Shown: positions 35,244 to 37,818 of the stretch, in pieces
How the letters are laid out: every line of letters starts with the position of its first letter
How positions within the stretch are numbered: position 1 is the stretch's first letter
Virus record (IMG/VR): IMGVR_UViG_3300045884_000242
Span: 1-37,818 of that record
Source of the DNA: a virus
Strand: one strand, 5' to 3'
DNA length: 37,818 bases
Notes under the pieces: model-generated
What the model was told of the DNA's origin: nothing
What the model saw: only the letters and a program-made list of their open reading frames with translations
The model's database searches: none
Made by a program: the position numbers and the translations under genes

Positions 35244-35614
35244 CCAGCCGCAGAGTTCAGACCGCCATCGCGCTGGTGTTCCTGTTCGTGGGGATCCTCA
35301 GCGTCGCCAATGCGTTCCAGTTCAACCGCTACGTCAGAGCCACGGTGGTCAGGGACAATGCGCAGGAGGAATGTCAGCGGGAGACGCTGATCGCGTTGCG
35401 CGGGTGGGCGCAGGCCCGTGTCGCCACCGAAACCGCGTATTCGGCGCGTGATGACGCCCTGGCTGATGTGGTCGCCACCATCGAGGAGGGCGGGAAGGCC
35501 ACCCCGGAGCAGACACGGCGCCTACTGGTCGCTGTCCAAGGTGCGCAGACCGCCCGTGATGCGTTGTTCCGCAATGCGCGTGAGCATCCGCTACCCGTCT
35601 GCAAGATCGACTGA
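35240..35614 (+). CDS. Single-span membrane protein with helical ectodomain (124 aa)
   Basis: TTG 35240 overlaps the holin stop (TTGA), the only start consistent with the coupling. A transmembrane helix follows at residues 8-26 (TAIALVFLFVGILSVANAF), then a charged alpha-helical domain with two cysteines (EECQRE and VCKID). The plan (N-anchor plus coiled coil) resembles Rz-type spanins or the second, LysZ-like membrane proteins found in actinophage lysis cassettes. It is the last gene of the late operon, 28 bases before the terminator stem. Function inferred from position. Confidence 0.68.
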   Translation: MTSRRVQTAIALVFLFVGILSVANAFQFNRYVRATVVRDNAQEECQRETLIALRGWAQARVATETAYSARDDALADVVATIEEGGKATPEQTRRLLVAVQGAQTARDALFRNAREHPLPVCKID

Positions 35615-35642
35615 CGGAGTAGGCCGAGAGGCTCACCCAATC

Positions 35643-35677
35643 CCGCCCTCAGTCCTCACGGGCTGGGGGCGGTTTTT
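35643..35677 (+). terminator. Intrinsic terminator of the late operon
   Basis: CCGCCCTCAGTCC (35643-35655) and GGGCTGGGGGCGG (35660-35672) form a 13-bp stem with two G-U pairs and a TCAC loop, followed by TTTTT at 35673-35677. It lies just after the last late gene and before genes on the opposite strand. The 35678-35871 remainder has only a weak TCCCGC/GCGGGA hairpin near 35693-35715 and the dyad at 35841. Confidence 0.9.
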
Positions 35678-35840
35678 CGCGCGATAATGGTTCCCGCACG
35701 CCGAAAGGCGGGAGGTGCGCGTCTACTGTGCCCCACGCTATCGGCACGCTGCACCAGCTAACTTTCCGCTGCAAACAAGAGCCAGATAACAGCCATTATG
35801 TCAACCTGGATGGGTGAATAACCGCAGGTCAAACGATGGT

Positions 35841-35857
35841 GCTAGCTGACAGCTAGC
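35841..35857. repeat. Inverted repeat GCTAGCT-gac-AGCTAGC
   Basis: A perfect 7-bp dyad with a 3-base spacer lies 15 bases past the stop of the minus-strand DUF732 gene. No T tract follows on either strand, so it is either a weak end-of-transcript hairpin for the int operon or a binding site for a dimeric protein. Confidence 0.5.
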
Positions 35858-35871
35858 GGCCGTGTGGCAAA

Positions 35872-36156
35872 CTATACGTTGCAATGCTTCTTCACTGTGG
35901 CCAGGACCGCCTGCGCGACATGCTCGTCGTAGTCCTTCCGTACGGCGGCCAGGATCTCTGTGTCCTTGGCCCCCATTGAATGCACCACGCACATAGATCC
36001 GACGGTCACCCCGAGCTGGAACGTCGTTGACACCCCGGCGGCTTTCAGGTCGGCCGCCATGGCGTCGATGTAGTCCCCTTCGTCCGCACTTGCCGGGGCC
36101 GCGCAGAACAGCATGGTGGCGGCGAGCACTGCGGCGATTCGTGGTGTGGTGAGCAT
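35872..36156 (-). CDS. Secreted DUF732 protein downstream of int (94 aa)
   Basis: Exported small protein. A signal peptide occupies residues 1-24 (TTPRIAAVLAATMLFCAAPA then SADE cleavage region). The mature part is a DUF732 domain: DEGDYIDAMAADLKAAGVST, then GVTVGSMCVVHSMGAKDTEI and AQAVLATVKKHCNV, with two cysteines fitting the usual disulphide. It lies 57 bases past the integrase stop on the same strand and has a good ribosome site (AACGAGGAG), so it may be read in the lysogen with rep and int. It could change the host surface or protect the lysogen; DUF732 has no known function. Confidence 0.8.
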   Translation of the reverse strand: MLTTPRIAAVLAATMLFCAAPASADEGDYIDAMAADLKAAGVSTTFQLGVTVGSMCVVHSMGAKDTEILAAVRKDYDEHVAQAVLATVKKHCNV

Positions 36157-36213
36157 TGTCGTTTCTCCTCGTTGTGAGTGATTCTGCGCGGTCAGGCGAC
36201 AGCGCGGAACGGA

Positions 36214-37068
36214 TCAAGCAGCGTCGCGGTAGCGCATCAGGTTCAGCCCGGCGATCGCGTCACGGCGGCGGCGATCCGGCACCCGCGTGTAGATCTGCGT
36301 CGACTGGATCGACTTGTGCCGCATCAGCTCCTGCACCACGCGGATGTCGTTGCCGTCGTCGAGCAAGCTGCTCGCATACCAATGCCGCAGGCTGTGCGGT
36401 GTTCCCCGCACCCCGGCGCGGCGCATCGTGCGGCCGATGACGTCCGACACGGATTTTGATCGGACGTGCTCCGACGGGCAGGCCCGCATCGGGAACCACC
36501 ACCCCGACTCGGGCATCCGCGAAGCAACTTCGACCAGCGCCGGATGCAACGGAACAGACCGGACCTTGCGGCCTTTACCCTTCACCCACAGCAGCCGGGC
36601 ACCCAGGTCGACGTCCTCACCGCGGACCCGCGCTATCTCCCCCACCCGCAGCCCGGCGAGCAGCGCCAGCAGAATCATGGTCCGCGTCGACGACCACATG
36701 CGGGCGCCGAGCAGCCTGGGCACGTCGGCGTCGGAGATGGGCCGCGGCTCACGCTCAGGCACCTTCGCCGACCCGACCTTCACCATCGGATTATCGGTGC
36801 GCCGGTCCACGACCTGCAGCCACTTGAACCACGCCGCCAGATAGCTGGTATAGGTGGCGGTCGTGGAGTCCGACCATTCATCGTGGGAGGCGATCCAACC
36901 GACGACGTCGACCGGTTCGGCGTGCCCCGGCTGCACCCCGGTATCAGCGTGGAACTGCTCGACGACCCGGCGGCGCTCGCTGATGGTGACGTGCGACAGG
37001 CGTTGCGCGTGCTGCCACACAACCCAGTCAGCTAATCCGATGGTGCCCGCTCCTCTTTGTGTTGACAT
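36214..37068 (-). CDS. int: Tyrosine integrase
   Basis: Site-specific recombinase that joins attP to the host tRNA attB. All catalytic residues are present: R141 (LLAGLRVGEIARVRGEDVD), Lys in WVKGKGRKVR (near 163-169), H225-xx-R228 (PHSLRHWYAS), H251 (LMRHKSIQSTQIYTRV) and Tyr260. The 284-aa length from ATG 37068 is compact; the arm-binding N-terminal domain is short or missing. ATG 37068 is preferred to 37128 because CGGAACC precedes it. The protein ends RYRDAA, resembling a degradation tag, as reported for integrases of phages with integration-dependent immunity. It lies directly downstream of the repressor and attP core. Confidence 0.92.
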   Translation of the reverse strand: MSTQRGAGTIGLADWVVWQHAQRLSHVTISERRRVVEQFHADTGVQPGHAEPVDVVGWIASHDEWSDSTTATYTSYLAAWFKWLQVVDRRTDNPMVKVGSAKVPEREPRPISDADVPRLLGARMWSSTRTMILLALLAGLRVGEIARVRGEDVDLGARLLWVKGKGRKVRSVPLHPALVEVASRMPESGWWFPMRACPSEHVRSKSVSDVIGRTMRRAGVRGTPHSLRHWYASSLLDDGNDIRVVQELMRHKSIQSTQIYTRVPDRRRRDAIAGLNLMRYRDAA

Positions 37069-37155
37069 GGTTCCGATTGTCGGGTGCGCGATGCGCTGGC
37101 CGGACCGTTTTGCGTGTTTATGTGACATACGTCTGTTTGCTGTCTGGGTGTGAGG

Positions 37156-37503
37156 TTAGGCGGCCAGCGGTGTTACGGACACAAAAGGGCAGTCTGACTG
37201 GCTAATAATCCGCAGGTCCTCCGTTCGAGTCGGAGTAGGGGCACCCACTCCCCCGGCGCCGTCGGGGCTGGTTGTGCCGCTGGTGATCCAGCTGACCGGC
37301 ACGCCGGTAGCTAAAGCCCACGCGTTGAGCGTCGTGCGTCGCGGCGTCCCGTGTCCTGTTTCGGCATTGCTGATGGCGGCGCGGGAGATCCCCGAACGGG
37401 CCGCCAACTGTTCCTGGTCGAGTCCGGCGAACTCGCGGGCGATCCGCAGGCGGTGTTTCACCTCGATAGGCGGCACACTGCCTTGCTCGTATGCACTGGT
37501 CAT
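37156..37503 (-). CDS. rep: Phage repressor with attP in its 3' end and ssrA-like tail
   Basis: XRE-type repressor of the lytic genes, 115 aa. Residues 14-72 are the HTH (EVKHRLRIAREFAGLDQEQL, AARSGISRAAISNAETGHGT). The region from about residue 87 to 99 is encoded by the antisense of a tRNA 3' half (GAPTPTRTEDLRI), the attP core. The C-terminus reads SQSDCPFVSVTPLAA, ending in LAA as the mycobacterial ssrA tag does. In BPs-type phages the full-length viral repressor is degraded and integration removes the tag, giving a stable shorter form; the same is inferred here. ATG 37503 lies 7 bases after a -10 box, implying a leaderless mRNA. Confidence 0.88.
   Translation of the reverse strand: MTSAYEQGSVPPIEVKHRLRIAREFAGLDQEQLAARSGISRAAISNAETGHGTPRRTTLNAWALATGVPVSWITSGTTSPDGAGGVGAPTPTRTEDLRIISQSDCPFVSVTPLAA
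37202..37247 (+). other. attP: attP core: 3' half of a host tRNA gene
   Basis: Read on the plus strand, this matches the 3' half of a class I tRNA with exact spacing: anticodon-stem 3' strand TCCGC (37209-37213), variable loop AGGTC, T stem CTCCG/CGGAG around TTCGAGT (37219-37235), acceptor strand TAGGGGC (37236-37242), then A and CC. No 5' half exists upstream, so it is an attachment core and not a tRNA gene. The AATCCGCAGGTC segment is most like tRNA-Lys. It lies inside rep, about 140 bases upstream of int. Confidence 0.87.
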
Positions 37504-37510
37504 GGCGCGA

Positions 37511-37539
37511 ACTATATGCACAGTTACGCAACCCGTCAA
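37511..37539 (-). promoter_or_regulatory. Leaderless rep promoter
   Basis: On the minus strand TTGACG (37539-37534) and TATAGT (37516-37511) are separated by exactly 17 bases. Seven bases (37510-37504) separate the -10 from the repressor ATG, so transcription should begin at or next to the A of ATG. The spacer holds the operator-like GTTGCGTAAC. Confidence 0.8.
37523..37532. promoter_or_regulatory. Operator-like dyad O1 GTTACGCAAC
   Basis: GTTACGCAAC is a near-perfect dyad (GTTRCGYAAC) placed between the -35 and -10 of the rep promoter. A related site lies at the opposite promoter, fitting control of both by one dimeric protein, either Rep or the Cro-like product. Confidence 0.6.
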
Positions 37540-37566
37540 GCATGGAGAGCGCTTTCTATGTGAGTA

Positions 37567-37576
37567 ACTACGCGAA
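37567..37576. promoter_or_regulatory. Weaker operator-like site ACTACGCGAA
   Basis: This site differs from GTTACGCAAC at four or fewer positions and lies between the two promoters, 44 bases from the first and 26 from the second operator centre. It may be a third operator, as in lambda-type switches, but the match is weak. Confidence 0.35.
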
Positions 37577-37592
37577 TCGCCATCAATCAATG

Positions 37593-37602
37593 CTTGCGTA
37601 AT
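37593..37602. promoter_or_regulatory. Operator-like dyad O2 CTTGCGTAAT
   Basis: CTTGCGTAAT is the same motif in the opposite orientation (ATTACGCAAG on the minus strand) and overlaps the proposed -35 (TTGCGT, 37594-37599) of the rightward promoter, so a bound repressor would block RNA polymerase. Confidence 0.6.
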
Positions 37603-37622
37603 TATCCGCACACGTCTAGTTT
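37594..37622 (+). promoter_or_regulatory. Leaderless rightward (lytic) promoter
   Basis: TTGCGT (37594-37599) and TAGTTT (37617-37622) are 17 bases apart, and seven bases follow to ATG 37630, mirroring the rep promoter on the other strand. The -10 fits TAnnnT; the -35 is a moderate match. A competing -10-like TAATTA at 37599-37604 has no good -35. Confidence 0.6.
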
Positions 37623-37629
37623 CGGACAC

Positions 37630-37818
37630 ATGCCGCAACCACCACTGTCGGTCACCGAGGCCGCCGAACAAGCAGGGGAACCCAGACGCACGATCCAGTG
37701 GGCAATCCAGCAAGGACATCTGAAAGCCCACAAAATGCCCGGCCGCACCGGCGCTTACCTGATCCAGCAACGCGACCTCGACCGCTGGCTGACCAAGCGT
37801 GAGCAGGAAACGGCGTGA
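37630..37818 (+). CDS. Cro/Xis-like winged HTH protein (62 aa)
   Basis: Small DNA-binding protein of the MerR/excisionase type: LSVTEAAEQAGEPRRTIQWA (HTH), then IQQGHLKAHKMPGRTGAYLI and a final helix QQRDLDRWLTKREQE. It is divergent from rep and is the first rightward gene, the place of Cro in BPs-like phages; the fold is also that of excisionases, so it may repress rep, direct excision, or both. ATG 37630 is chosen for the leaderless promoter; an in-frame ATG further upstream at 37594 would overlap the -35. Its stop is the last base of the window. Confidence 0.8.
   Translation: MPQPPLSVTEAAEQAGEPRRTIQWAIQQGHLKAHKMPGRTGAYLIQQRDLDRWLTKREQETA

What the first reader, a model, noticed from the sequence alone, without database searches (positions are those of the whole stretch)
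37156..37503. Integration-dependent immunity switch: attP inside the repressor, with an ssrA-like -LAA tail
The repressor frame runs through the antisense of a tRNA 3' half (codons about 87-99) and then 16 residues that end PLAA. The mycobacterial ssrA tag also ends LAA. In phages BPs, Brujita and Charlie this arrangement makes the viral repressor unstable and the integrated, truncated form stable, so lysogeny depends on integration. The HTH, the core, the int gene and the divergent HTH gene are all in the expected order here. The tail sequence and core are seen directly; the behaviour is inferred.
Basis: partly seen in the sequence, partly recalled or inferred. Interest (0 to 1): 0.93.

Follow-up and report, generated by a model that had tools for sequence, protein, structure and literature searches.

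The report
Phage repressor trimmed by chromosomal integration
This phage fragment carries a known kind of switch: its repressor gene contains the site where the phage joins the host's lysine-tRNA gene, so joining the chromosome should cut a destruction tag off the repressor and make the bacterium immune. It is a well-supported new member of an established system, not a new one.

Summary
The 115-aa repressor (37156-37503, minus strand) reads from a HTH_3 domain through the antisense of a tRNA 3' half (core 37206-37245) into a 16-residue tail ending PLAA. The integrase beside it ends RDAA, and a divergent HTH gene follows.

The target is almost certainly tRNA-Lys(TTT). Joining a mycobacterial tRNA-Lys 5' half to the window's 3' half gives a tRNA-Lys for ARAGORN, and the repressor would then stop at a tRNA-derived TAG as a 102-aa protein ending DLRI|KSP.

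Real Mycobacterium lysogens with related integrases show this design. Four have attL repressors ending DLRI|KSP*, and a fifth uses another frame. In all five the matching attR remnant, read in the same frame, ends in -AA (5/5, against 0/10 in the other frames).

Caveats: no sampled genome carries the window's exact core (T-arm CTCCG/CGGAG), so its host is unknown; one lysogen shows that a T-arm mismatch is tolerated. Repressor instability and integration-dependence are inferred, not measured.

Novelty is low: integration-dependent immunity is established. The added points are a mosaic repressor (Gordonia-type HTH, WST1-type tail and integrase) and use of all three antisense frames of tRNA-Lys(TTT).

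The parts
37156..37503 (-). Immunity repressor, viral (full-length) form, 115 aa; ATG at 37503, TAA at 37158-37156
   Evidence: ORF; PF01381 E 3.3e-12; phrog_2328 transcriptional repressor E 4e-28; annotated immunity repressors are the best phage matches
37285..37449 (-). HTH_3 DNA-binding domain (residues 19-73)
   Evidence: Pfam match; N-terminal 84 aa are 56-65% identical to Gordonia phages Doggs, Dmitri, RogerDodger and mycobacteriophage Bipper, and only marginally similar to WST1
37206..37245 (+). attP common core = 3' half of tRNA-Lys(TTT) (anticodon-loop edge, T-arm, acceptor); antisense encodes GAPTPTRTEDLRI
   Evidence: Alignment with host tRNA-Lys genes; chimera called tRNA-Lys(ttt) by ARAGORN; WST1 core 82% identical over 55 bp
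37159..37206 (-). C-terminal tail lost on integration, ISQSDCPFVSVTPLAA (codons 100-115)
   Evidence: Translation; C-terminal 29 aa (core plus tail) 69% identical to WST1
37159..37167 (-). ssrA-like C-terminal tag -LAA
   Evidence: Sequence; mycobacterial tmRNA tags end ALAA; -AA ending found in the matching frame of 5/5 related prophage remnants
37174..37188 (+). TACGGACACAAAAGG: DNA motif in the tail, conserved among relatives that read it in different frames; possibly an integrase-binding element
   Evidence: Alignment of 19 att-flanking sequences; role inferred
36214..37128 (-). Tyrosine integrase, 304 aa, 27 bp downstream of the repressor on the same strand; ends RDAA
   Evidence: PF00589 E 7.6e-27; 68-74% identical to integrases of Gordonia Meyran/Ewald, WST1, Charlie, Redi; -AA end
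36217..36225 (-). ssrA-like C-terminal -DAA of the integrase
   Evidence: Sequence; a tag on the integrase is part of the known system (PMC9262239)
37511..37539 (-). Candidate repressor promoter TTGACG-17-TATAGT; the -10 ends 7 nt before the ATG, so a leaderless mRNA is likely
   Evidence: Promoter scan 10/12 matches, shuffles mean 0.1; leaderless reading inferred
37524..37601 (.). Candidate operator region: TTACGCAA..CAAGCAT (37524-37543) facing ATGCTTGCGTAA (37590-37601), overlapping both divergent promoters
   Evidence: Inverted repeat, 9 of 10 pairs; word positions; function inferred
37630..37818 (+). Divergent small HTH_17 protein (Cro- or excisionase-like), 62 aa, at the end of the record
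   Evidence: PF12728 E 2.7e-10; weak PHROG hits to excisionase/recombination directionality factors (E about 2.5e-5)

Best explanation
The locus is an integration-dependent immunity switch of a temperate phage whose host, judged by its lysin B and its relatives, is a Mycobacterium or close relative. [quoted passage not shown] The co-transcribed integrase also ends in -AA. When the integrase recombines attP with the 3' half of the host tRNA-Lys(TTT) gene, the phage supplies the new tRNA 3' half. The repressor gene then reads on into the antisense of the host tRNA 5' half and stops at TAG after I-K-S-P. The resulting 102-aa repressor has its HTH intact, lacks the tag, is stable and confers immunity. 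Shown by sequence: architecture, tRNA rebuilding, predicted stop, tags, and the same geometry in real lysogens of related phages. Inferred: proteolysis of the long form, activity of the short form, and that immunity requires integration.
For: The HTH, core and tail are in one ORF. The integrase is 68-74% identical to those of Charlie, Redi, WST1 and Gordonia Meyran/Ewald. A simulated attL with mycobacterial tRNA-Lys genes gives 102 aa ending DLRIKSP, TAG 9 nt past the core edge, in 24 of 26 tRNA-Lys loci; the two exceptions are already-disrupted tRNA halves. The chimeric tRNA is recognised as tRNA-Lys(ttt). Related lysogens G644, G651, G519 and G458 have attL repressors with an HTH that end DLRI|KSP*, and G674 uses another frame, ending KVRSSTD*. 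Their attR remnants in the matching frame end YEAA, DEAAA, ASAA, KNAA and SFAA; the other ten frames do not end in AA (Fisher p = 3e-4). Host tmRNA tags end ALAA. Both repressor and integrase of the window end in AA, alone among about 39 genes. Mechanism demonstrated for BPs: PMC4557955, PMC9262239.
Against: No genome carries the exact core: 0 exact in GTDB genome contigs, only an Ilumatobacteraceae tRNA-Lys with changes for a relaxed pattern, and 0 at 3 mismatches or fewer in 397 Mycobacterium and 351 family genomes. The host is therefore unidentified. No lysogen of this very phage was found. Stability and immunity are untested. The divergent gene resembles excisionases weakly, whereas the literature says these systems lack an evident directionality factor (PMC9262239).
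Confidence: 0.91

Rival explanations
1. attP lies in the repressor and integration does trim it, but the switch does not work through ssrA-like proteolysis. The tail blocks oligomerisation or DNA binding, or is degraded through a different signal, and the -AA end is incidental.
For: Some integration-dependent repressors of M. [quoted passage not shown] The window's structural genes are nearest to MabN prophages.
Against: The -AA ending recurs in the one correct frame in 5/5 related lysogens while the rest of the tail differs in sequence and length. The published BPs long and short forms bind DNA similarly, so the tail does not block binding there (PMC4557955).
Confidence: 0.08
2. An ordinary repressor with an attP core that merely overlaps its 3' end. 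Both forms are active and immunity does not need integration.
For: Activity of the two forms was not measured here, and phage genes sometimes overlap att sites without a regulatory role.
Against: Repressor and integrase are the only window genes ending in AA. The arrangement is kept in many related phages and lysogens with different HTH domains and different frames.
Confidence: 0.04
3. The record is a defective or misassembled prophage remnant, so the intact attP is an assembly join and the switch is not functional.
For: The record is a linear fragment with no end repeats that stops exactly at the end of the divergent gene; right-arm genes are missing.
Against: Integrase, repressor, amidase endolysin and lysin B frames are intact. 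The tail is homologous to that of WST1, and an attL/attR misjoin would not give a perfectly tRNA-compatible core in frame.
Confidence: 0.03

Closest known systems
Integration-dependent immunity of mycobacteriophages BPs, Charlie, Redi, Brujita (clusters G, N, I, P; Broussard et al. 2013 as cited in PMC9262239)
   Same: attP inside the repressor ORF, repressor and integrase adjacent on one strand, tRNA attB, ssrA-like endings, host-derived stop on integration; the integrase is about 68% identical to that of Charlie and Redi.
   Different: Charlie and Redi read the tRNA-Lys antisense in another frame (stop TAA at the core edge, inferred); the window's repressor HTH is of another family, and its predicted stop is TAG after three host codons.
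Mycobacteriophages WST1 and IdentityCrisis
   Same: Closest core and tail: same frame, core plus tail 59-69% identical, core DNA 82% identical to WST1, integrase 68-70% identical, repressors end -EAA.
   Different: N-terminal HTH half is only marginally similar and the T-arm of the core differs.
Gordonia phages Doggs, Dmitri and the Wizard group; mycobacteriophage Bipper
   Same: Repressor HTH half 56-65% identical; annotated immunity repressors next to or near tyrosine integrases; [quoted passage not shown]
   Different: Different core, tail and integrase modules.
M. abscessus prophages prophiT36-2a and 2b (PMC9934374)
   Same: Integration-dependent switches that share one att core but read it in different frames.
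   Different: There the target is tRNA-Thr and two frames are reported; here three frames are seen over tRNA-Lys(TTT) in related elements.

Membership tests
Integration-dependent immunity (BPs/Charlie type) | attP common core lies within the viral repressor ORF | tested here: met
   Core 37206-37245 within ORF 37156-37503
[quoted passage not shown]
   Host 5' half plus window 3' half = tRNA-Lys(ttt) by ARAGORN; full acceptor and T-stem pairing
Integration-dependent immunity (BPs/Charlie type) | Matching attB present in an identified host | tested here: inconclusive
   TAATCCGCAGGTC segment of tRNA-Lys in 25/28 genomes, but exact core absent; T-arm mismatch tolerated in lysogen G651
Integration-dependent immunity (BPs/Charlie type) | Host-derived stop at attL truncates the repressor | tested here: met
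   In silico 102 aa, DLRIKSP then TAG; the same end in four related lysogens
Integration-dependent immunity (BPs/Charlie type) | ssrA-like C-terminal tag on the viral repressor | tested here: met
   Ends PLAA; host tmRNA tags end ALAA
Integration-dependent immunity (BPs/Charlie type) | Integrase co-oriented next to the repressor, with its own tag | tested here: met
   36214-37128(-), 27 bp away, ends RDAA
Integration-dependent immunity (BPs/Charlie type) | Divergent Cro-like gene and shared control region | tested here: met
   HTH_17 gene 37630-37818(+) and an inverted repeat in the intergenic region; excisionase resemblance leaves Cro versus RDF open
Integration-dependent immunity (BPs/Charlie type) | Full-length repressor unstable, truncated form stable and immune | not testable with these tools
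   Needs expression and half-life measurement

The most novel reading that the evidence does not exclude
tRNA-Lys(TTT) acts as a frame-independent landing pad for this kind of switch: its antisense is open in all three frames across the 3' half and has a stop in all three frames in the 5' half. Any HTH domain can therefore be joined in any frame to the core, and repressor heads are exchanged at the core between phages (possibly by the integrase itself in double infections), changing immunity type while the integrase-tail module stays.
Probability: 0.35. Interest if true: 0.55.

Novelty: new member of a known kind. Interest (0 to 1): 0.36.

Why it matters
It adds a member with an unusual head/tail combination to a switch that ties lysogeny to integration through proteolysis. 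The comparison of real lysogens tests the model at sequence level in several cases: the matching frame, and only that frame, carries the -AA tag in the other end of the prophage. It also suggests why a tRNA gene can serve as the switch point for repressors read in any frame, and gives a simple rule for finding such switches and their prophage forms in genomes.

Tried and rejected
Exact host attB: two genome-wide pattern scans and two mismatch-tolerant searches (397 and 351 genomes, partly overlapping) found no host with the window's T-arm. The single relaxed hit, an Ilumatobacteraceae MAG tRNA-Lys(CTT), was rejected as host because it differs at the T-stem and acceptor, and because the phage's lysin B (cutinase-like) points to a mycolic-acid host. 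No near DNA relative of 35600-37818 exists in the phage collection, and the core was not found in viral contigs. An early chimera test used an off-by-one core start and gave no clean tRNA; it was corrected (one search is superseded). The idea that tRNA antisense in general is stop-rich in the 5' half was weaker in a diverse set of 32 tRNAs than in the Lys-heavy first set; only tRNA-Lys(TTT) and one tRNA-Met have the three-frame property. The 2013 Mol Cell paper is not held in the library, so its content is cited through later papers.

Full report
WHAT IS THERE. The window is a 37,818-bp linear viral record, and its last 1.6 kb hold an integration/immunity cassette. On the minus strand lie a 115-aa repressor (37156-37503; PF01381, E 3.3e-12; phrog_2328 'transcriptional repressor', E 4e-28) and, 27 bp downstream, a 304-aa tyrosine integrase (36214-37128; PF00589). 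A divergent HTH_17 gene starts at 37630. The record also codes an amidase endolysin and a lysin B; lysin B points to a host with a mycolic-acid envelope (general knowledge). Its structural genes are nearest to prophages of M. abscessus cluster MabN and to IdentityCrisis/WST1.

THE CORE. Codons 87-99 of the repressor are the antisense of AATCCGCAGGTCCTCCGTTCGAGTCGGAGTAGGGGCACC. tRNA-Lys(TTT) genes with TAATCCGCAGGTC at the same place occur in 25 of 28 Mycobacteriaceae genomes checked and nearly all begin GCCCCTA, which pairs fully with the window's TAGGGGC. Host 5' half plus window 3' half is recognised as tRNA-Lys(ttt); the attP sequence alone is not. The T-stem CTCCG/CGGAG differs from the sampled hosts but is fully paired. 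No genome with this T-arm was found, either exactly in the GTDB contigs or at up to 3 mismatches in 397 Mycobacterium and 351 family genomes. The host is therefore unidentified. A differing T-arm is not fatal: in lysogen G651 the rebuilt tRNA carries CCCAGG..CCTGG while the host half left at the other end carries CCTAGG..CCTAG, and BPs too has core mismatches that keep tRNA pairing (PMC9262239).

WHAT INTEGRATION DOES. Joining the repressor to tRNA-Lys antisense gives a 102-aa protein ending DLRI|KSP, stopped by a TAG 9 nt past the core edge, in 24 of 26 tRNA-Lys loci. The two exceptions (L044, L069) are disrupted tRNA halves. The tail ISQSDCPFVSVTPLAA is lost.

TEST ON REAL LYSOGENS. A search of 397 Mycobacterium genomes found 14 with related integrases. 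Five have both prophage ends readable. At attL, four repressors run from an HTH domain through the core and end DLRI|KSP* (G644, G651, G519, G458); the fifth, G674, uses the next frame and ends KVRSSTD* (HTH matches, weak for G674 and G458). At attR next to the integrase, the remnant read in the same frame ends GYEAA, CDEAAA, EFASAA, AKNAA and SVSFAA; the ten other frames do not end in AA (Fisher p = 3e-4; random-tail background 3.4%). In the window, only the repressor and the integrase of about 39 crude gene calls end in AA. tmRNA tags end ALAA in 7 of 7 mycobacterial genomes. For the window's own HTH family, IMG/VR prophage contigs L010, L011, L014, L025 and L026 show repressors stopped by TAA inside tRNA antisense, while free-phage records of the family carry longer tails, several ending -AA.

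MOSAIC STRUCTURE. The N-terminal 84 aa are 56-65% identical to Gordonia phages Doggs, Dmitri and RogerDodger and to Bipper, but only marginally similar to WST1. The C-terminal 31 aa are 69% identical to WST1 and 59-63% to IdentityCrisis and Bunker, and not significantly similar to the Gordonia phages that share the head. The break lies at the start of the core. Ewald and Meyran likewise share a tail but have different heads.

THREE FRAMES. Window, WST1, IdentityCrisis, Bunker and four lysogens read the core as ..PTRxRTxDLRI (frame 0). G674 reads it as VPPPGLEPGTCGL. Charlie, PhancyPhin, Meyran and Ewald read it as CPxQGSNxxPADY. Of 32 tRNA genes of one Mycobacterium genome, tRNA-Lys(TTT) is one of two whose antisense is open in all three frames over the 3' half and has a stop in all three frames in the 5' half. 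The literature reports two frames over one tRNA-Thr core as a unique arrangement (PMC9934374). In the tail a DNA motif, TACGGACRNNAAAGG, is kept at a near-fixed distance from the core by phages that read it in different frames, so the DNA itself is probably under selection, perhaps for integrase binding (inferred).

CONTROL REGION. A promoter TTGACG-17-TATAGT lies just upstream of the repressor ATG, 7 nt before it, which suggests a leaderless message. A weaker TTGCGT-17-TAGTTT lies 7 nt before the divergent ATG (own reading of the sequence). An inverted repeat overlaps both and is a candidate operator.

VERDICT. Observation confirmed; interpretation supported. This is a new member of integration-dependent immunity, with the head/tail mosaic and the three-frame use of tRNA-Lys(TTT) as modest additions. 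Proteolysis, activity of the short form and dependence on integration remain inferred from BPs (PMC4557955, PMC9262239).

Noticed in passing
window 37174-37188 and the tail regions of L002-L005, L028, L031, L033, L071-L084: DNA motif TACGGACRNNAAAGG about 20-30 bp from the core edge is conserved among phages that translate it in different frames, suggesting a DNA-level role such as integrase binding.
   Followed up: partly
L090, L104, L112 (one Mycobacterium genome, G651): Three tRNA-Lys 3' halves in a row mark two tandem elements of about 12 and 52 kb; the rebuilt tRNA has a phage T-arm that differs from the host's.
   Followed up: partly
L100, L110 (genome G937): A 14-kb element in tRNA-Lys whose own integrase gene runs antisense through the core and ends DLRI|KSP*, so here attP lies inside the integrase gene; the other end has no -AA tail.
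   Followed up: no
window 35872-36156 (-): Small protein with a signal-peptide-like start between the lysis cassette and the integrase; no Pfam or PHROG match.
   Followed up: partly
window 37630-37818 (+): The divergent HTH gene matches excisionase/RDF profiles weakly, although integration-dependent systems are said to lack an evident directionality factor.
   Followed up: no
tRNA-Lys(TTT), L133: Antisense is open in all three frames in the 3' half with a stop in all three frames in the 5' half; only one other of 32 tRNAs of that genome shares this.
   Followed up: yes
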